Positions 25,644 through 32,655 of a DNA stretch of 38,870 bases are shown here, piece after piece. The notes beneath the pieces were generated by a model, which did not search any database, was not told the origin of the DNA, and worked only from the letters and a program-made list of their open reading frames with translations. Position 1 is the stretch's first letter, and each line of letters starts with the position of its first letter. The DNA is from Bacteroidales bacterium (GTDB lineage: Bacteria > Bacteroidota > Bacteroidia > Bacteroidales > UBA932), in contig JAFYEZ010000038.1 in assembly GCA_017544005.1 (NCBI GenBank), positions 1 to 38,870 of the forward strand, written 5' to 3'. The position numbers and the translations under genes were made by a program.

Positions 25644-25743
25644 CTGAAAGCGGAGGAAAAACATGCGCGTCTGCGCGTACGCGTGCGGGCGACTTATGAG
25701 AAACTTATCAACAAACTGTACTGCTAACAGCTGGAGGGCGTTT

Positions 25744-26044: not shown

Positions 26045-26575
26045 TTATTTCCCGCAGCCGCCTTCGCAGTCGGAGCAGTTGCCGCTGCAGTGGTGGGCAA
26101 GTTCGCCGTGGAGACCCTCGGCGAGCTCCTTGTCCGTGGCTTCGCGGACCGCGAGGACCTCACCGGTGAAGTGAAGCGTCTTGCCGGCCAGCTCGTGGTT
26201 GAAATCCATCTTGACCTTCTCGTCGTTGATCTCGAGCACGCGGCCGGGAACCACGCGGCCGTCGTTGGTCATCATGGGGACGGTGGCGCCCACGCGGATG
26301 CGCTCGTCAATCTTGCCGTCGCTCTCAAACATACTGCGGGCGAGGTCGAGCACGGCGCTGGCGGAATAGACGCCATAGCCCTCCTCGGGAGTGAGGACGA
26401 AATCAAAGGTGTCGCCTACCTCCTTGTCGAGGACATTGGCCTCGAACTTGGGCAGCAGGTAGCCCATGCCAAAGATAAATTCCAGCGGATGCTCAGCGTC
26501 GGCGCGGTCGCGGACGGCGCCCTCCACATCCAGCACATAGGAGAGGGCGACTACTTTGTTGTCATTAATTTTCAT
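26045..26575 (-). CDS. slyD: FKBP-type peptidyl-prolyl isomerase SlyD
   Basis: A 176-aa SlyD-like cytoplasmic prolyl isomerase and chaperone. The FKBP domain is interrupted by the inserted-flap domain normal for SlyD: PLEFIFGMGYLLPKFE and VGDTFDFVLTPEEGYG belong to the FKBP part, RVGATVPMM to the flap, and MDFNHELAGKTLHFTGEV to the FKBP end. The C-terminus is a Cys/His tail (HHC, then Cys167, Cys170, Cys174) of the kind that binds nickel or zinc in SlyD. Its start lies inside the end of nhaC (11-bp overlap), so it is probably translated from the same message, and an intrinsic terminator follows. The tail is short compared with the E. coli protein but retains four cysteines. Confidence 0.93.
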   Translation of the reverse strand: MKINDNKVVALSYVLDVEGAVRDRADAEHPLEFIFGMGYLLPKFEANVLDKEVGDTFDFVLTPEEGYGVYSASAVLDLARSMFESDGKIDERIRVGATVPMMTNDGRVVPGRVLEINDEKVKMDFNHELAGKTLHFTGEVLAVREATDKELAEGLHGELAHHCSGNCSDCEGGCGK

Positions 26576-27998
26576 GGGGTTCTAATCTATGAATCTTGAA
26601 ATTGAACGCCGCCAGCAGGATGGCGATGACGGGCGTCACGAAACAGAAGAGGGCGTAGGGGAAATAGGCCATCGTGGCTACGCCCAGCACGGTGGACTGA
26701 ATCACGGCGCAGGTATTCCAGGGAACGAGCACCGAGCTGACCGTGGCCGAGTCACCGAGCGTACGGCTCAGGAGCTCAGGCGCATAGCCCAGTTTCTTGT
26801 AGGTAGTGGCGAACATCTTGCCGGGAAGCAGGATGGCCATATACTGGTCTGCGAGGATCATATTGGAAACGATGCAGGTGCCGACCGTGGTGGCCACGAG
26901 CGAACCGGCGCCGCGAATCATCTTGATCAGGGCGTTGGTCAGGGTTTCCAGCATGCCGCTGCCCGCCAGGGCGCCGCCCGCCGACATGATGCAGATCACG
27001 AGCCAGACCGTGTTGATCATGCCCGCCATACCGCGCGTGGAGGTCAGGTTGTTCAGGAGCTCGTTGCCCGTATCCACGGCGATGGGGGTGGACATCATCT
27101 TGAAAACGGTGGAGAGGGCGCTGCCCACGCCGGAGCCTTCGCCGGCAATCTGCAGCACAATCTGGGGCTGAGCCCAGAAGGCCACGAGGCCGCCGACCAG
27201 GGCGGAGACGAACAGCGTCAGGAAGGCGGGGATCTTCTTGACCACCATGAAGATGGTCAGGCACGGGATCAGCAGCAGCCAGGGCGAGATGTGGAAGGTG
27301 TTGCTGATGGCGTTGAGCTCTGCGGCCATCTCAATCTCTGCGGTAGCGGGGAGCGTGAGACCCACGATCAGATAGACCGTAAAGCAGATGATGAAGGCCG
27401 GAATGACCGTATGCAATGAATAACGGATATGCTTGTAAAGATCTGAACCGGCAACCGTTGCGGCCAGGTTGACGGCGTCCGAGAGCGGGGAGAGCTTGTC
27501 ACCGAGGTAGGCGCCGGAGATGATGGCGCCGGCCATCCAGCCCACAGGCAGACCGATCAGCTTGCCGGCCGTGAGCATCGCCACGCCGATCGTGCCGACG
27601 GTGGTCCAGGAGCTGCCCGCCAGGATGGAGACGAGGCTGCAGAGGACAAAGGTGATCACGATAAAAAAGCGCGGGCTGATAATCTTCAGACCGTAGTAAA
27701 TCATGGTCGGCACGGTGCCCGAGAGCATCCAGGTGGCCGTCAGGGCGCCGATGGAAAGCAGAATCAGCAGCGTGGGGGCCGTCTGGCGGATATTCTCGGA
27801 AATATCTTCCTCCACCTTGGCCCAGGGAACCTTCAGGAAAATGATGGCGATGCCCGCCGTCAGCAGCGTGGAGAGCAGCAGGGCAATCTGGATGGGGCCC
27901 GAGGTGGCGTCGTCGCCGAAAAAGACCACACACAACGCCAGCAGGGCCACGAGCGCCAGCAGCGTTGCGATAGAGAGTGCAAGTCCGGGTTTCTTCAT
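26565..27998 (-). CDS. nhaC: Na+/H+ antiporter, NhaC family
   Basis: A 477-aa polytopic inner-membrane protein of the NhaC/ArsB-like group. It opens with two hydrophobic helices (ATLLALVALLALCVVFF and IALLLSTLLTAGIAIIF). Family landmarks are SGTVPTMIYYG, AGSSWTTVGTIGVAML, GAIISGAYLGDKLSPLSDAVNLAATVAG and the late DQYMAILLPGKMF and LSRTLGDSATVSSVLVPWNTCA. The length is in the family range. It probably exchanges Na+ for protons; the exact substrate cannot be fixed from sequence, since some relatives exchange malate and lactate. It lies 12 bp after pmbA and overlaps slyD by 11 bp. Its presence with a sodium-type V-ATPase subunit in the window fits a sodium-based membrane economy. Confidence 0.9.
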   Translation of the reverse strand: MKKPGLALSIATLLALVALLALCVVFFGDDATSGPIQIALLLSTLLTAGIAIIFLKVPWAKVEEDISENIRQTAPTLLILLSIGALTATWMLSGTVPTMIYYGLKIISPRFFIVITFVLCSLVSILAGSSWTTVGTIGVAMLTAGKLIGLPVGWMAGAIISGAYLGDKLSPLSDAVNLAATVAGSDLYKHIRYSLHTVIPAFIICFTVYLIVGLTLPATAEIEMAAELNAISNTFHISPWLLLIPCLTIFMVVKKIPAFLTLFVSALVGGLVAFWAQPQIVLQIAGEGSGVGSALSTVFKMMSTPIAVDTGNELLNNLTSTRGMAGMINTVWLVICIMSAGGALAGSGMLETLTNALIKMIRGAGSLVATTVGTCIVSNMILADQYMAILLPGKMFATTYKKLGYAPELLSRTLGDSATVSSVLVPWNTCAVIQSTVLGVATMAYFPYALFCFVTPVIAILLAAFNFKIHRLEPHEN

Positions 27999-28010: not shown

Positions 28011-29345
28011 CTATATACCACTGAAATTCACCCCTTCGAAGGCGAGGGAGGGAACGGCCCACCGGGAGGAGGTGCGCGGATCGTCGCCGACGGCGGTGAG
28101 ATGGTTCCACAACTCGAGCATATTGCCCGTGATGTTCATCTCCCTGACCGGATGGACGATGCGGCCTTTCTCGAAGCGGAAACCGCGGATTCCGTAGGAG
28201 AAGTCTCCCGTGGAGGGGTTGCAGTTGCCGCCGTTGAAGTCGGTGATGAGGATTCCCTGGCCCGTCTGTTCCAAAAGGGCGGGCAAATTTAACACTTTTT
28301 CGGAATTTTCCCCGATGCGGCTGAAACGCAGCACGGAAGGGGCATCGACGGTGGCGGGAATGCCCATCTTCAGCGCATAGTAATGCGGGATGAAATAGGC
28401 GTTTACGACGCCCCGGGCGATGATTTCGCGGCGGGCGGTGGCCAGGCCGTCGCCGTCGAAGAGGCGGGAGCCCGGGAGGCCGGGGACGAAGGGATCGTCC
28501 GTCAGGGTAAAATTCTCGCCGAAAACCTGCGTGCCGAGGCGGTCCATCAGGAACGAACTGCGCTGTTGGAGCGATCCGCCGCTCAGGGCGCGGATCAGGG
28601 GCGAAACCACCTTGGAGGCGACCATGTTGTCAATGACGATATCGTAGCGCCCGCTGCGCAGCTTGCGCGGGTGGAGCTGGTCCAGCGCGCGCTGGAGGGC
28701 CTTGCGGCCGCATCCTTTGGGGTTGGCCTCGTCGAGCCGGATACCGCTTTCATACCACCAGGCCTCGGGACGTTCGTCACCGCGACCGCGGATGGAGACG
28801 TTGGCATTGATGGTATGGTTGCTCTGGAGGGTCTCTCCTGCAAATCCCTGGCTGTCTGCGGTATAGGAATAGTCGATATTATCTCCCCACTCGGTCTCCA
28901 CCGAGAGCAGGCGGCGGTGCGAGCCCAGAATCTCGCGGCAGGCAGAGAGGGCCTTGTCGCGGCGCGCCTCCGGCGTCAGCGTCTCGATAGCCGGGTCGTA
29001 CTGCCGCAGGTCCCTCGCGGGGCCCTTCCAGCAAAGCGCGGGATCCGGCAGTCGCCGGCAGGGATCCGGGGTGATCAGGCGCACGGCGGCGGCCGCATGG
29101 CGGATAAACTCGCGCAGCGCGCTCTCTTCCAGTCGGTTGGTGGAGAAAGAGCCGTAGCGTCCGTCGAGATAAAGCTGGATGAAGAGGGTGGAGCCGCTGG
29201 CGGAGAGCGTCTTGTCCAGCCGGCCGTCCAGCACGGTGGCGGAATTTTCTACGGAGCGTTCCAGGGCAATGCGTGCCTGGGCGGCTCCGGCCTCGCGTGC
29301 CATCTGTAGCGCGGTCTCTACGATACTGTGGTCGAACGGGATCAT
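28011..29345 (-). CDS. pmbA: PmbA/TldE-like metallopeptidase partner
   Basis: A 444-aa partner of TldD. In E. coli, TldD and TldE (PmbA) form a heterodimeric protease that matures microcin B17 and degrades the CcdA antitoxin. This protein has the fold typical of the family (HSIVETALQMAREAGAAQARIALERS at the start; SGRYDIVIDNMVASKVVSPLIRALSGGSLQQRSSFL; GILITDFNGGNCNPSTGDFSYGIRGF near the end) and, as expected for PmbA, lacks the HExxxH metal motif. It overlaps tldD by ATGA, in keeping with a heterodimer made in fixed ratio, and stops at TAG 12 bp before nhaC. The frame is intact. Confidence 0.92.
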   Translation of the reverse strand: MIPFDHSIVETALQMAREAGAAQARIALERSVENSATVLDGRLDKTLSASGSTLFIQLYLDGRYGSFSTNRLEESALREFIRHAAAAVRLITPDPCRRLPDPALCWKGPARDLRQYDPAIETLTPEARRDKALSACREILGSHRRLLSVETEWGDNIDYSYTADSQGFAGETLQSNHTINANVSIRGRGDERPEAWWYESGIRLDEANPKGCGRKALQRALDQLHPRKLRSGRYDIVIDNMVASKVVSPLIRALSGGSLQQRSSFLMDRLGTQVFGENFTLTDDPFVPGLPGSRLFDGDGLATARREIIARGVVNAYFIPHYYALKMGIPATVDAPSVLRFSRIGENSEKVLNLPALLEQTGQGILITDFNGGNCNPSTGDFSYGIRGFRFEKGRIVHPVREMNITGNMLELWNHLTAVGDDPRTSSRWAVPSLAFEGVNFSGI

Positions 29346-30754
29346 AGGTCTCCTCCTACGATTAGAGATTTGACCAGCACGCTGGGCATGCCGCAGGAGA
29401 CGGGGCAGTACTGGTCCTTTCCGCAGGTCCAGGTGCTGTTGTCAATGCGGCTGTCGGCGGCCACGGCCACGATGTCGGCCAGGGCCTGCGGCCCGTTGCC
29501 GATGATGTTGATATCCTTGATGGGCTGCGTCAGACGCCCGTTTTCAATCAGAAATCCGCTCTTCACGTAGAAGGTGAAATCCCCGGCGCCGATCTCCACT
29601 TCGCCGTTGGTGAAGGAGTCCACGAAGATGCCGCGTTTCACGCTGTGGATGATCTCCTCCTGCGTGCCGCTGCCGCTCTCCATATAGGTGGCCCGCATGC
29701 GCGGGATGGGGTTGAAGCGGAAGGATTCGCGGCGGCCGTTGCCCGTGGGGGCCACGCCGTAGTGCGCGGCGCTGATCCGGTCGTGCAGGTAGGAGGTCAG
29801 GACGCCCTCGCGCACCATGTAGGTCTTCTGGCCGGGCGTGCCCTCGTCGTCGATATTGACGGCCCCGCGGTTGCCCGGGAGGGTGGCGTCGTCCACCACG
29901 TTGATCTGCCGGGAGCAGATCCGCTTGCCCATCTTGTCGGAGAAAATGGAGACCCCCTTGCGGTTGAAATCGGCCTCGAAGGCGTGCCCGATGGCCTCGT
30001 GGAGCAGGATGCCGGAGCTGCCTGCGGCCATTACCACGGGCATCCGTCCGCCCTTGGGACGGCGCGCCTCGAAGAGATAGGGAATGTGGGCCTCCACCTC
30101 GGCGACCATCTCGTCCAGCAGGGCCTCGGAGAGCATCTCGCTGCCGCGGCGGAAACTGCGCGAAACGGTGACATTCTCGCTGTGGCCCTCCTTCTCCAGG
30201 ATGCAGCTGGCCACCAGCGAAAGGATGGGGCGCTCGTCGCAGAAGAGGTCGCCCAGCGAATTGGCAAAGAGAATATCGGAATGGTCGTAGGCCAGATTGG
30301 CCACCACCCTGACAATCAGGGGGCTGAGCGCAGACAGCCGTTCACCGAAGTGGCTCAGGAACGCCTTGCGGGCGCACACGTCGAGCGACTCCCAGGGCGT
30401 GCGGATCGGATAGTGGTTCGTGACCTGCAGCCGCGTCAGCGGGGCGGGGGCGGTACCGGCAGCGGGGCAGTCGGCAATGCTGGCCGCCGTACGGGCGGCG
30501 CGCTCCATTTCGGCGGGAAGGGTGCTCTCCGCGTAGGCATAGCCGGTATGTCCGTCCTTAATGACGCGGATGCCCACGCCGTAGTCCGCCGTGCTCTCCA
30601 CGGCGGAGACTTCGCCGTCGCGAAGCGTCAGTTCATCGGAGGTGGTAGATTCAAAAAAGATGTCGGCATAGTCTCCGCTCCGGGAGAGTGCCGACTCCAT
30701 CAGTCTGCGAATACCCTCTTCATCAATCTGGAAGAGGTCAAAGTACTTCTTCAA
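29342..30754 (-). CDS. tldD: TldD-like metallopeptidase
   Basis: The catalytic subunit of the TldD/TldE protease. The HExxxH zinc motif is present as HEAIGH (His252, Glu253, His257 counted from the chosen start), followed by AFEADFNRKG as in TldD. Other conserved pieces are YADIFFE, ADYGVGIRVI, MESGSGTQEEII and GDFTFYVKSG. The start is a judgement: a longer frame runs upstream but would overlap the 51-aa gene completely. A TTG four bases after that gene's stop gives a 470-aa protein of normal length with a plausible N-terminus (LKKYFDLFQID). The next ATG, 18 codons on, would cut into the conserved fold. TldD is best known for its effect on CcdB/CcdA, which makes its position behind a toxin-like gene notable. 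Confidence 0.9.
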   Translation of the reverse strand: MKKYFDLFQIDEEGIRRLMESALSRSGDYADIFFESTTSDELTLRDGEVSAVESTADYGVGIRVIKDGHTGYAYAESTLPAEMERAARTAASIADCPAAGTAPAPLTRLQVTNHYPIRTPWESLDVCARKAFLSHFGERLSALSPLIVRVVANLAYDHSDILFANSLGDLFCDERPILSLVASCILEKEGHSENVTVSRSFRRGSEMLSEALLDEMVAEVEAHIPYLFEARRPKGGRMPVVMAAGSSGILLHEAIGHAFEADFNRKGVSIFSDKMGKRICSRQINVVDDATLPGNRGAVNIDDEGTPGQKTYMVREGVLTSYLHDRISAAHYGVAPTGNGRRESFRFNPIPRMRATYMESGSGTQEEIIHSVKRGIFVDSFTNGEVEIGAGDFTFYVKSGFLIENGRLTQPIKDINIIGNGPQALADIVAVAADSRIDNSTWTCGKDQYCPVSCGMPSVLVKSLIVGGDL

Positions 30755-30758
30755 GGTC

Positions 30759-30914
30759 TCAGAGCTCCACTGCTTTAACGGTGACCACCTGACCCTCTTC
30801 CGCGAAAGCCAGCTCGGAATTCGATTTCTTCTTTTCCGCAACAAGCTTTTCGAAGGAACGTCCCATCCCTTTGATGATATCGTCCCGCAAATCCCTAGTC
30901 TCTTGTTCGCTCAT
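30759..30914 (-). CDS. 51-aa partner of the zeta-toxin-like gene (candidate antitoxin)
   Basis: A 51-codon frame starting MSEQETRDLRDDIIKGMGRS and ending TVKAVEL with TGA. Its ATG lies inside the last codons of the zeta-like gene (20-bp overlap) and its stop is four bases before the tldD start. The sequence is charged, helix-prone at its front (roughly 1-31) and ends in a short strand-like piece (GQVVTVKAVEL). The overlap strongly suggests translational coupling, the layout of toxin-antitoxin pairs with the toxin first. It does not resemble the classical epsilon antitoxin, which is about 90 aa. Similar short genes follow zeta-family genes in other Bacteroidetes as far as I recall; the antitoxin role is inference. 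Confidence 0.6.
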   Translation of the reverse strand: MSEQETRDLRDDIIKGMGRSFEKLVAEKKKSNSELAFAEEGQVVTVKAVEL

Positions 30915-31476
30915 ATTCCAAAATCGAGTTATAAATAGGTTTCGAATGAATCTTTGTCGTAATGTTCACGCCGCCCTCGGCGACGATGCGGCCAGCCTGG
31001 CCGGAGTTGTCGATCAGAACCCAGTAGTCCACGATCGGCATGTACAGCTTGAACAGGTTGTCGATGCCCGAGGCGTAGCGCCGCATGATGGTGGCCTCCG
31101 GGACATCGTGTCCGCCGGACTGCACGCGCAGCCGGACCCGTTCAATAGCCAATTCCGGAATCCGGAGCCACAGGAAGACGAGGGTCACCATGTACCCGCG
31201 CCGCTGGGCGTCCACCACGATCCGCGCCAGCGATTTGGTGGAGAGGGTGGTTTCGATGCCGAAATTTTCCCTTTTTTCAATCAACTCGTCCATCCGTTCC
31301 GCCATCAGCTTGCTGGCCTTGATGGCCGCCAGGGCCGGGTTGAACGGAGAGAGGCCCTTGGCAATCTCGTCCGAATTGATGAACTCGTTGCAGTCGAGCA
31401 GTTCCGGCAGAAGGGTGTAGGACGCCGTCGTCTTTCCGGAACCGTTGCAGCCTGCTATGATGAACATCTTGGGCAT
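30895..31476 (-). CDS. Zeta-toxin-family P-loop kinase
   Basis: A 193-aa P-loop protein of the zeta-toxin family. Known zeta toxins phosphorylate UDP-N-acetylglucosamine and thus block peptidoglycan synthesis. Visible features: Walker A GCNGSGKTT at 9-17; INSDEIAKGLSPFNP with Asp36 in the position of the catalytic/substrate aspartate; GIETTLSTKS (Glu75-Thr77); and GGHDVPEATIMRRY with Arg132 and Arg133 of the lid. The start follows a strong Shine-Dalgarno-like AAGGGAGG six bases upstream, unusual in this window, and a TAnnTTTG element. It ends at TAG, overlapping the 51-aa gene. Family members also include non-toxic kinases, so toxicity is not established. glmM and a namZ-like gene lie just upstream on the same strand. 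Confidence 0.85.
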   Translation of the reverse strand: MPKMFIIAGCNGSGKTTASYTLLPELLDCNEFINSDEIAKGLSPFNPALAAIKASKLMAERMDELIEKRENFGIETTLSTKSLARIVVDAQRRGYMVTLVFLWLRIPELAIERVRLRVQSGGHDVPEATIMRRYASGIDNLFKLYMPIVDYWVLIDNSGQAGRIVAEGGVNITTKIHSKPIYNSILEYERTRD

Positions 31477-31482
31477 ATCAGA

Positions 31483-31490
31483 CCTCCCTT
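31483..31490 (-). promoter_or_regulatory. Strong Shine-Dalgarno sequence of the zeta-like gene
   Basis: AAGGGAGG on the minus strand, 6 bp before the ATG. Bacteroidetes genes generally lack such strong sites, and the other starts in the window do not show one. Confidence 0.7.
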
Positions 31491-31496
31491 GTTTTG

Positions 31497-31504
31497 CAAA
31501 AGTA
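31497..31504 (-). promoter_or_regulatory. -7 promoter element (zeta-tldD cluster)
   Basis: TACTTTTG matches TAnnTTTG, 20 bp upstream of the zeta-like ATG. It lies between the NamZ-like gene and the zeta gene, so the cluster probably has its own transcript. Confidence 0.6.
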
Positions 31505-31554
31505 GAAAAATATCTCCGCGGGTAAGCGCTTCGAAGGACAAATTTATCAACAGG

Positions 31555-32655
31555 TTATTTAACCCTCCAGGGTAGGTCGTCGTAGAGGGCGTATTTCTTG
31601 GATTTGCGCATCCATTTCTGCTCCTCCACCTTGATGTACTCGGAGGTGACGTCCCAGTCCACCTTGCCCTCGAGGTAGCAGAGGAGCGCCTCGTCGTCGA
31701 GCAGGGGCTCCATGCCGTCGAATTCGAATTCCGGGCACTCTTCGCGCACGAAACGGATCAGCCGCAGGGCATGGTTCAGGGCGTGGTAGTTGACCCCCGG
31801 GATGAACATCAGCTGGAAGCCGAAGCAGGCGCGGCCCGCGTGGATGCCGTAGGCCGGCACGAAACGGGTCCAGCGGATGCGGATATCGGGGTTGGCGACG
31901 GGATTCGCCGGATCGTTCCAGCCGTGGAATCCGTGGCGCTCGTTGTAGTCGTAGAGCGGCTCCATGAAGGGGGCGCCGAACTGTTCGAAGGGGCGGGTGG
32001 TGCCATGGCCGTAGCTCACGTTGGTCCCCATCCAGAGGCACTGGCCGCTGTAGAAGTGCGAGGTGAAGAGCCCGGCGAAATCGGTGAAGGGCGGGATGGT
32101 CCAGGGCATCAGTTCCCGGTTGACGGCTTCCGCCGCCGCGGAGATGATGTGCAGGGGGAACTTGGCGTTGGCCTCCTCGTAGAACAGGTAGGCCACTTCG
32201 CCAAAGGTCAGGCCGTGGCGCTGCGGCAGCCCGATGCTGCCCATCGTGCCCTCAATCTGGCGGCCCGAAGGGTTGATCCTATCCAGCAGATAAACAGCAA
32301 TTTGTGCATCCTTTTCCTTAAAGAGGCGGATCAGGTTGCGGAGCAGCCGGGTGAAGGTGCTGTAGCGCGATCCCACATCCTGCAGCTCGATGACTAGCGC
32401 ATCGATTCCCTCGAATTCTTCCCAGGGAATCGTATCGCCCACTTCCACCGCCTCCAGGTTGTCGCTGACCGGGCCGTAGAAGGAGTGCTCGGGCATGAAG
32501 ACCTTGACCAGGTGCCGCTCCCGCTCGAGGGTTTCGAACAGATACTCACCCTCTTCCGGATGCCAGGCAACCTGGTTGCACAGCAGGGCCAGCCGCCCCT
32601 CGCGGAGGGTGCGGTCGCTCTGTTCGAGCAGCGGAGTGGTACGGAAGGAGAACAT
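31555..32655 (-). CDS. NamZ-like exo-beta-N-acetylmuramidase (DUF1343)
   Basis: A 366-aa protein of the DUF1343/NamZ family, whose characterised member removes N-acetylmuramic acid from the end of muropeptide chains during cell-wall recycling. Supporting segments: LALLCNQVAW, VKVFMPEHSFYG, IDALVIELQDVGSRYSTFTRLL (family signature), YLLDRINPSGRQIEGTM, LPQRHGLTFGEVAYLF and WMGTNVSYGHGTTRPFEQFGAPF. No signal peptide is visible, so this copy appears cytoplasmic, unlike many relatives. It starts one base from the glmM stop (TAATG), which indicates coupling between amino-sugar activation and wall recycling. The frame is intact with TAA. Confidence 0.88.
   Translation of the reverse strand: MFSFRTTPLLEQSDRTLREGRLALLCNQVAWHPEEGEYLFETLERERHLVKVFMPEHSFYGPVSDNLEAVEVGDTIPWEEFEGIDALVIELQDVGSRYSTFTRLLRNLIRLFKEKDAQIAVYLLDRINPSGRQIEGTMGSIGLPQRHGLTFGEVAYLFYEEANAKFPLHIISAAAEAVNRELMPWTIPPFTDFAGLFTSHFYSGQCLWMGTNVSYGHGTTRPFEQFGAPFMEPLYDYNERHGFHGWNDPANPVANPDIRIRWTRFVPAYGIHAGRACFGFQLMFIPGVNYHALNHALRLIRFVREECPEFEFDGMEPLLDDEALLCYLEGKVDWDVTSEYIKVEEQKWMRKSKKYALYDDLPWRVK

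What the first reader, a model, noticed from the sequence alone, without database searches (positions are those of the whole stretch)
29342..31504. Zeta-toxin-like kinase and overlapping 51-aa gene heading a TldD/TldE operon
The order on the minus strand is promoter, zeta-like kinase, 51-aa gene (20-bp overlap), tldD (4-bp gap) and pmbA (ATGA overlap). Seen: intact Walker A and zeta motifs, HEAIGH in TldD, and spacing that implies one message. Known: TldD/TldE in E. coli were found through the CcdAB toxin-antitoxin system and degrade the CcdA antitoxin. Inference: the protease may process or degrade the 51-aa partner and so control the kinase. I know of no described system with this layout.
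Basis: partly seen in the sequence, partly recalled or inferred. Interest (0 to 1): 0.8.

Follow-up and report, generated by a model that had tools for sequence, protein, structure and literature searches.

The report
Zeta-type kinase with downstream small partner
A gut-type bacterium carries a kinase gene of the zeta-toxin family whose end overlaps a gene for a tiny conserved protein; the two occur together widely as what looks like a toxin-antitoxin pair, while the protease genes next to them are probably only neighbours.

Summary
The layout is real: promoter box, zeta-family kinase (KIN), 51-aa gene (SM, 20-bp overlap), tldD (4-bp gap), tldE (ATGA overlap). It splits into two parts.

KIN-SM is a two-gene module. 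SM lies directly downstream of KIN in 69 of the 80 best related loci and 40 of 50 close kinases from 295 genomes of the order. It is under purifying selection and matches no Pfam or NCBIfam family. Where the genus lost SM, KIN diverged more than its neighbours. Best reading: SM is an antitoxin-like restrainer of a zeta-type kinase, in toxin-first order.

TldD/TldE is probably not part of it. KIN and tldD adjoin only in the window's family among those 295 genomes. SM and tldD are each lost without the other. 32 of 42 SM genomes have no tldD hit. In relatives with a longer SM-tldD spacer, terminator-like hairpins lie in it.

Against: intact KIN persists without SM in four clades.

The parts
30895..31476 (-). 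KIN: zeta-toxin-family P-loop kinase, 193 aa (Walker A 31426-31452; NSDEIA with presumed catalytic Asp36 31360-31377; ETTLS 31240-31254; RRY 31075-31083)
   Evidence: Pfam Zeta_toxin E 9.9e-12; motif coordinates; invariant columns
30759..30914 (-). SM: 51-aa downstream partner gene, 20-bp overlap with KIN
   Evidence: no Pfam or NCBIfam family
31497..31504 (-). TACTTTTG, probable -7 promoter box (consensus recalled)
   Evidence: TANNTTTG at -25 to -30 in 13 of 14 loci examined
31544..31552 (-). TGTTGATAA, element about 40 nt 5' of the promoter box
29342..30754 (-). tldD metalloprotease subunit (HEAIGH 29984-30001); neighbour, not shown to belong to the module
28011..29345 (-). tldE/pmbA subunit; neighbour
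26565..27998 (-). NhaC-type antiporter; neighbour in the same block
26045..26575 (-). FKBP-type peptidyl-prolyl isomerase; directly follows KIN in the SM-less genus clade
31555..32655 (-). NamZ-type exo-N-acetylmuramidase gene upstream of KIN
   Evidence: synteny

Best explanation
KIN and SM form a toxin-antitoxin-like pair. KIN is a zeta-fold small-molecule kinase, by family most likely acting on a UDP-amino-sugar precursor of the cell wall. SM is a roughly 50-aa protein, by eye an amphipathic helix followed by a hairpin-like stretch, probably made by coupled translation from an overlapping downstream gene. It binds KIN and holds it in check. KIN-SM has its own promoter. TldD/TldE belongs to a neighbouring unit that became co-transcribed with it in the window's subclade when the spacer and its terminator shrank. 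Shown here: pairing, overlap, conservation, selection, separate losses, hairpins in relatives. Inferred: binding, inhibition, toxicity, substrate, co-transcription.
For: SM directly downstream in 69 of the 80 best loci, from Bacteroidota and one Chlorobiota record, and in 40 of 50 close KIN matches in 295 genomes of the order; 6 more are followed by a look-alike 60-77-aa ORF without a significant match. No SM lies upstream of KIN in the 80 loci. The SM frame relative to KIN is the same in 82 of 89 loci. Similar pairs lie on Nostoc and Geminocystis plasmids (SM model 17.0 and 22.0 bits), with a weak look-alike on Synechocystis pSYSG (2.9 bits). Purifying selection on both genes. KIN of the SM-less genus clade is 54.5% identical to the window's (n=18) against 64.0% (n=8) for SM-bearing loci outside the window's subclade (p=7e-5), while namZ, FKBP and g19474 do not differ and glmM-like and g18446 are closer in the SM-less clade. 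Of six interrupted close KIN genes, five stand beside an intact SM, and three genomes keep SM without a detected KIN; avrRxo1/arc1 shows the same pattern (PMC4938570, passages).
Against: Intact KIN persists without adjacent SM in four clades of the tree (18 genus loci; L083/L103; L102, L115, L128, L138, L140, L144; L057/L116). A genome-wide search with the first SM model found none in the SM-less genus genomes, G061 or G054; it was not done for L083/L103, and L116 shares a genome with L114, which has SM. KIN is a syntenic chromosomal gene in 33 of 37 genus genomes, unlike a typical mobile toxin. The faster KIN divergence rests on one loss event; in the six-locus clade KIN is lower (51-54% against 58-66%) but FKBP falls too (48-52 against 55-59), so nothing KIN-specific can be claimed there. 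Interrupted KIN genes may be assembly errors, and KIN is about four times longer than SM. The helix is weakly supported (hydrophobic moment 0.29 at 100 degrees, 0.60 at 90). No solved structure matched at E 0.001 and none could be predicted.
Confidence: 0.58

Rival explanations
1. Three-part system of the first reader: TldD/TldE degrades or processes SM and thereby controls KIN.
For: The genes are spaced like one transcription unit in the window and its subclade, spacer 0-7 nt in 6 of 17 entries. In the genus SM and tldD occur in nearly the same genomes (17 each of 40, 16 shared). TldD/E degrades the CcdA41 fragment (PMC5810440).
Against: The genus pattern fits loss of one block, SM-tldD-tldE-nhaC, in one clade. 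No significant SM-tldD co-occurrence across the order. SM and tldD each lost alone. Terminator-like hairpins between SM and tldD in relatives. Full-length CcdA resisted TldD/E in vitro.
Confidence: 0.06
2. KIN is a housekeeping sugar or nucleotide-sugar kinase of cell-wall turnover, and SM is an activating or stabilising subunit rather than an antitoxin.
For: NamZ lies within about 110 bp upstream on the same strand in the window and 15 of 32 fetched genus loci, and a phosphohexomutase gene (PGM/PMM family; GlmM-like is my guess) is next to it in the window. KIN is syntenic and vertically kept in the genus. Intact KIN occurs without SM in several clades.
Against: The NamZ neighbourhood is local: other lineages have a cluster-2 gene, hemW or unrelated genes upstream. 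A similar pair sits on a conjugative Nostoc plasmid between two VapC genes. Patchy: close KIN in 49 of 295 genomes of the order.
Confidence: 0.28
3. KIN is functional alone and SM is an unrelated small gene kept nearby only by overlap and translational coupling.
For: KIN survives without SM in several clades.
Against: Pairing holds across Bacteroidota in unrelated neighbourhoods, sometimes with a few bases between the genes instead of an overlap; SM-less KIN of the genus diverges more.
Confidence: 0.06

Closest known systems
Zeta toxins / PezT (epsilon-zeta, PezAT)
   Same: KIN passes the Pfam Zeta_toxin cut-off, with P-loop, Asp and Arg motifs in the order given for zeta in PMC4938570.
   Different: The partner matches no Pfam family and lies downstream; substrate untested.
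AvrRxo1:Arc1 (PMC4938570, passages seen)
   Same: Zeta-like kinase first, small partner directly downstream; partner intact beside broken kinase genes.
   Different: Arc1 is 98 aa in the reference, predicted as 3-4 short helices with a double-tyrosine motif; SM is about 50 aa, by eye a helix then a hairpin-like stretch. AvrRxo1 is 421 aa in the reference and is a secreted effector.
ng_epsilon1/ng_zeta1 of Neisseria gonorrhoeae (PMC5923241, passages seen)
   Same: A zeta kinase paired with a partner of epsilon-unrelated fold.
   Different: ng_zeta1 is described as topologically rewired (P-loop Lys115, Asp56); KIN has Lys15 before Asp36.
EzeT (PMC4826407, part 1 of 3 read)
   Same: Zeta-type kinase with its own inhibitor.
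   Different: The inhibitor is fused at the N-terminus in EzeT; here it is a separate downstream gene.
Synechocystis pSYSG sll8004/ssl8003 (PMC4963859, passages seen; gene identity inferred from gene order)
   Same: Zeta-family kinase followed by an overlapping 59-aa gene; the paper lists both among TA-related genes that missed its criteria.
   Different: SM similarity there is not significant (2.9 bits); the pair was not among the four tested in that paper.
TldD/TldE (PMC5810440, passages seen)
   Same: Both subunits present with HExxxH in TldD only.
   Different: No evidence that SM or KIN is its substrate.

Membership tests
Zeta-toxin kinase family (PF06414) | Profile score above the curated cut-off | tested here: met
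   45.2 bits against 22.3
Zeta-toxin kinase family (PF06414) | P-loop Lys/Thr, catalytic Asp, conserved Glu and Arg | tested here: met
   K15, T16, D36, E75, R113, R117, R133 invariant in 75 aligned sequences; equivalence to zeta K46/T47/D67/E100/R158 inferred from motif order and PMC4938570
Zeta-toxin kinase family (PF06414) | Phosphorylation of UDP-N-acetylglucosamine or related sugars | not testable with these tools
   needs enzyme assay
Canonical epsilon-zeta / PezAT type II TA | Epsilon or PezA antitoxin | tested here: not met
   window SM matches no Pfam or NCBIfam family at E up to 1; five other SM proteins and seven SM or look-alike proteins (six of them) reach no curated cut-off
Canonical epsilon-zeta / PezAT type II TA | Antitoxin gene first | tested here: not met
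   SM is downstream in 69 and upstream in 0 of 80 loci
Type II toxin-antitoxin pair | Kinase toxic, small protein neutralises it by binding | not testable with these tools
   needs expression and binding assays
Type II toxin-antitoxin pair | Two-gene cassette conserved across unrelated neighbourhoods and on plasmids | tested here: met
   only 4 of 585 plasmid records with a KIN match were examined for a partner
Type II toxin-antitoxin pair | Toxin not kept intact without its antitoxin | tested here: not met
   intact KIN without adjacent SM in four clades; a changed, tame KIN there is possible
TldD/TldE protease | HExxxH in TldD, absent from TldE; family profiles | tested here: met
KIN-SM-TldDE as one system | Co-occurrence and operon-like layout beyond one lineage | tested here: not met

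The most novel reading that the evidence does not exclude
SM founds a new family of zeta-kinase antitoxins, about 50-60 aa and encoded downstream of the toxin, spread through Bacteroidota and reaching cyanobacterial plasmids. In several lineages the antitoxin was lost and the kinase was tamed and repurposed. In the window's subclade the loss of a terminator has in addition put the TldD/TldE protease on the same message.
Probability: 0.4. Interest if true: 0.65.

Novelty: new variant of a known kind. Interest (0 to 1): 0.42.

Why it matters
In the four plasmid records examined the kinase is annotated 'zeta toxin family protein' and its partner 'hypothetical protein'. Recognising the pair gives a concrete, testable antitoxin candidate for a widespread kinase group. 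The natural SM-less clades offer a built-in comparison of restrained and unrestrained kinases. The TldD/TldE link, the exciting part of the finding, looks like local synteny, which spares others from building on it.

Tried and rejected
TldD/E as a system part: rejected on distribution, separate losses and hairpins. SM as a chance ORF: rejected. SM as a member of a known family: nothing convincing (the PADLOC matches LmuC to SM, E 0.012, and mad8 to KIN, E 0.0014, were judged chance; PHROGs was not searched). Phage origin: four phage records match KIN, all under 60% identity, and one viral contig holds the pair. Sites marking SM loss in KIN: positions 29, 41, 45, 51, 142 and 151 changed in at least two of three SM-less clades, a number that 3 of 364 control triples reach, but 41 and 45 also vary in SM-bearing relatives, so I lean little on it. 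MAFFT would not place SM rows against a KIN+SM chain. Literature: no paper on this pair in ten searches of an open-licence library; most subscription papers are not covered.

The decay asymmetry (five of six interrupted KIN with intact SM) is compatible with TA behaviour but not decisive. L065 was dropped before the tree. L044 (G009) is labelled SM-less there by the search rule although its SM is intact; L195 is labelled SM-less too.
Full report
Observation. On the minus strand the window holds KIN (30895-31476), SM (30759-30914), tldD (29342-30754, TTG start) and tldE (28011-29345), with 20-bp overlap, 4-bp gap and 4-bp overlap as stated. KIN passes the Pfam Zeta_toxin cut-off; TldD and TldE match the three PmbA_TldD domains. 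A TANNTTTG box stands 25-30 nt before KIN in 13 of 14 SM-bearing genus loci examined, the window included; in the SM-less genus clade such a box lies 12-18 nt before KIN in 9 of 18 loci. The window lies in a 1.57-Mb, 50-contig draft genome. Its close named relatives are Bacteroidales bacteria, for example from goat rumen (L067) and horse faeces (L071), so I take the order to be Bacteroidales.

KIN and SM are a pair. In the genus KIN is found in 33 of 37 genomes. Of 32 fetched genus loci besides the window, 14 carry SM and 18 run from KIN straight into an FKBP gene. In 295 genomes drawn evenly from the order there are 50 close KIN matches (E below 1e-45) in 49 genomes. The SM frame relative to KIN is the same in 82 of 89 loci. 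A pair of this kind is on records typed as plasmids of Parabacteroides, Nostoc and Geminocystis, and a weak look-alike on Synechocystis pSYSG beside restriction and PIN genes; only 4 of 585 plasmid records with a KIN match were examined. SM has an invariant first Met and Gly16 and near-invariant Lys28 and Gly41 in 51 sequences, and no named family.

SM matters to KIN. Both genes show purifying selection in 78 pairs (median pN/pS 0.27 for SM, 0.24 for KIN; synonymous sites near saturation). In the kinase tree (120 rows, midpoint root) SM-bearing rows are spread widely, and SM-less rows fall mainly into clades on long stems (0.47, 0.36, 0.51). Within the genus, SM-less KIN is 54.5% identical to the window's (n=18) against 64.0% for SM-bearing loci outside the window's subclade (n=8; p=7e-5). 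namZ (66.6 vs 66.3), FKBP (60.0 vs 59.9) and g19474 (74.2 vs 73.3, only 2 SM-bearing) do not differ; the glmM-like gene (72.9 vs 71.5) and g18446 (84.8 vs 78.5) are closer in the SM-less clade. This is one evolutionary event, so it is suggestive, not proof. In the six-locus SM-less clade KIN is lower too, but so is FKBP, so that clade adds nothing. Of six interrupted close KIN genes, five stand beside an intact SM (G048, G075, G261, G167, G069; not G103), and three genomes hold SM without a detected KIN (G143, G183, G281).

TldD/TldE is a neighbour. tldD lies within 240 bp of KIN in 15 of 80 loci: 9 with SM between, 6 without SM; in one more it is 2.8 kb away. Of the SM-less six, 3 have the cluster-2 gene upstream and 5 an FKBP match, as in the genus block, and G061, in the window's family, has the same KIN type and layout. 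In the 295 genomes tldD (E 1e-30 or better) is in 46 and SM in 42, both in 10 (p=0.16; without the window's family p=0.47). KIN and tldD do co-occur somewhat (13 genomes, p=0.03), but not without the window's family (p=0.25), and adjoin only in that family. In the genus SM and tldD are in 17 of 40 genomes each, 16 shared; G009 keeps SM without tldD, and G026 has only a 45%-identical tldD piece at a contig end. That near-match fits loss of one block in one clade.

The single-message layout looks derived. In 17 loci measured, the SM-tldD spacer is 0-7 nt in the window and five subclade relatives (two with an uncertain tldD start), and 57-85 nt in the other 11. A script flags hairpins with T-rich tails in 9 of those 11 (its hits in L072 and L074 are weak); eight of the 11 were folded, including the two the script missed, and all have stable hairpins (z -2.55 to -5.59), four of the eight followed by six or more T. 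The tool's own scan finds the L036 and L041 hairpins. KIN-SM therefore probably once ended before tldD. An attenuator for tldD is an alternative reading of the hairpins.

Mechanism. Characterised zeta kinases phosphorylate UDP-sugars of wall synthesis and are held by a partner at the ATP site (PMC5923241 and PMC4938570, passages). I take KIN to be such a kinase and SM its restrainer; neither step is shown here. The strongest objection is that intact KIN survives without adjacent SM in four clades. I read that as taming of the kinase, supported by its divergence in the genus, but a housekeeping kinase with an accessory subunit is a serious rival, and the NamZ neighbour gives it some weight.

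Novelty. Zeta kinases with non-epsilon partners and toxin-first order are known (ng_zeta1, AvrRxo1:Arc1). A roughly 50-aa partner family of this kind was not found in print in my ten searches of an open-licence library (listed under Tried and rejected). Hence a new variant of a known kind.

Noticed in passing
window 31544-31552 (-) and 25705-25713 (-): TGTTGATAA lies about 40 nt 5' of the KIN promoter box, is present (read by eye) in 8 of the 14 SM-bearing genus sequences printed and in 0 of 18 SM-less genus loci, and has one more copy in the window (0.06 expected). It resembles a DnaA-box variant (recalled, not tested).
   Followed up: partly
SM-tldD spacers of L036, L038-L043, L072, L074, L076, L077: A short CTCTGC motif follows the SM stop codon and precedes the hairpin; it could belong to a tldD leader (by eye).
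   Followed up: no
L212 1953-2225 (-): An SM gene without detected KIN lies just downstream of a 102-aa ORF that looks like a RelE/ParE-type toxin (by eye, no family search) and a 73-aa ORF.
   Followed up: no
L083, L103: In two SM-less loci the gene after KIN looks like a lytic transglycosylase (recalled from sequence, not searched), again a peptidoglycan context.
   Followed up: no
295 genomes of the order: A TldD match at E 1e-30 or better was found in only 46 of 295 genomes, and the best matches fall into two groups, about 43-66% and about 31-33% identical to the window's TldD.
   Followed up: no
L088 (Bacteroides rodentium): KIN is intact while the SM reading frame looks shifted; this may be a sequencing error.
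   Followed up: no
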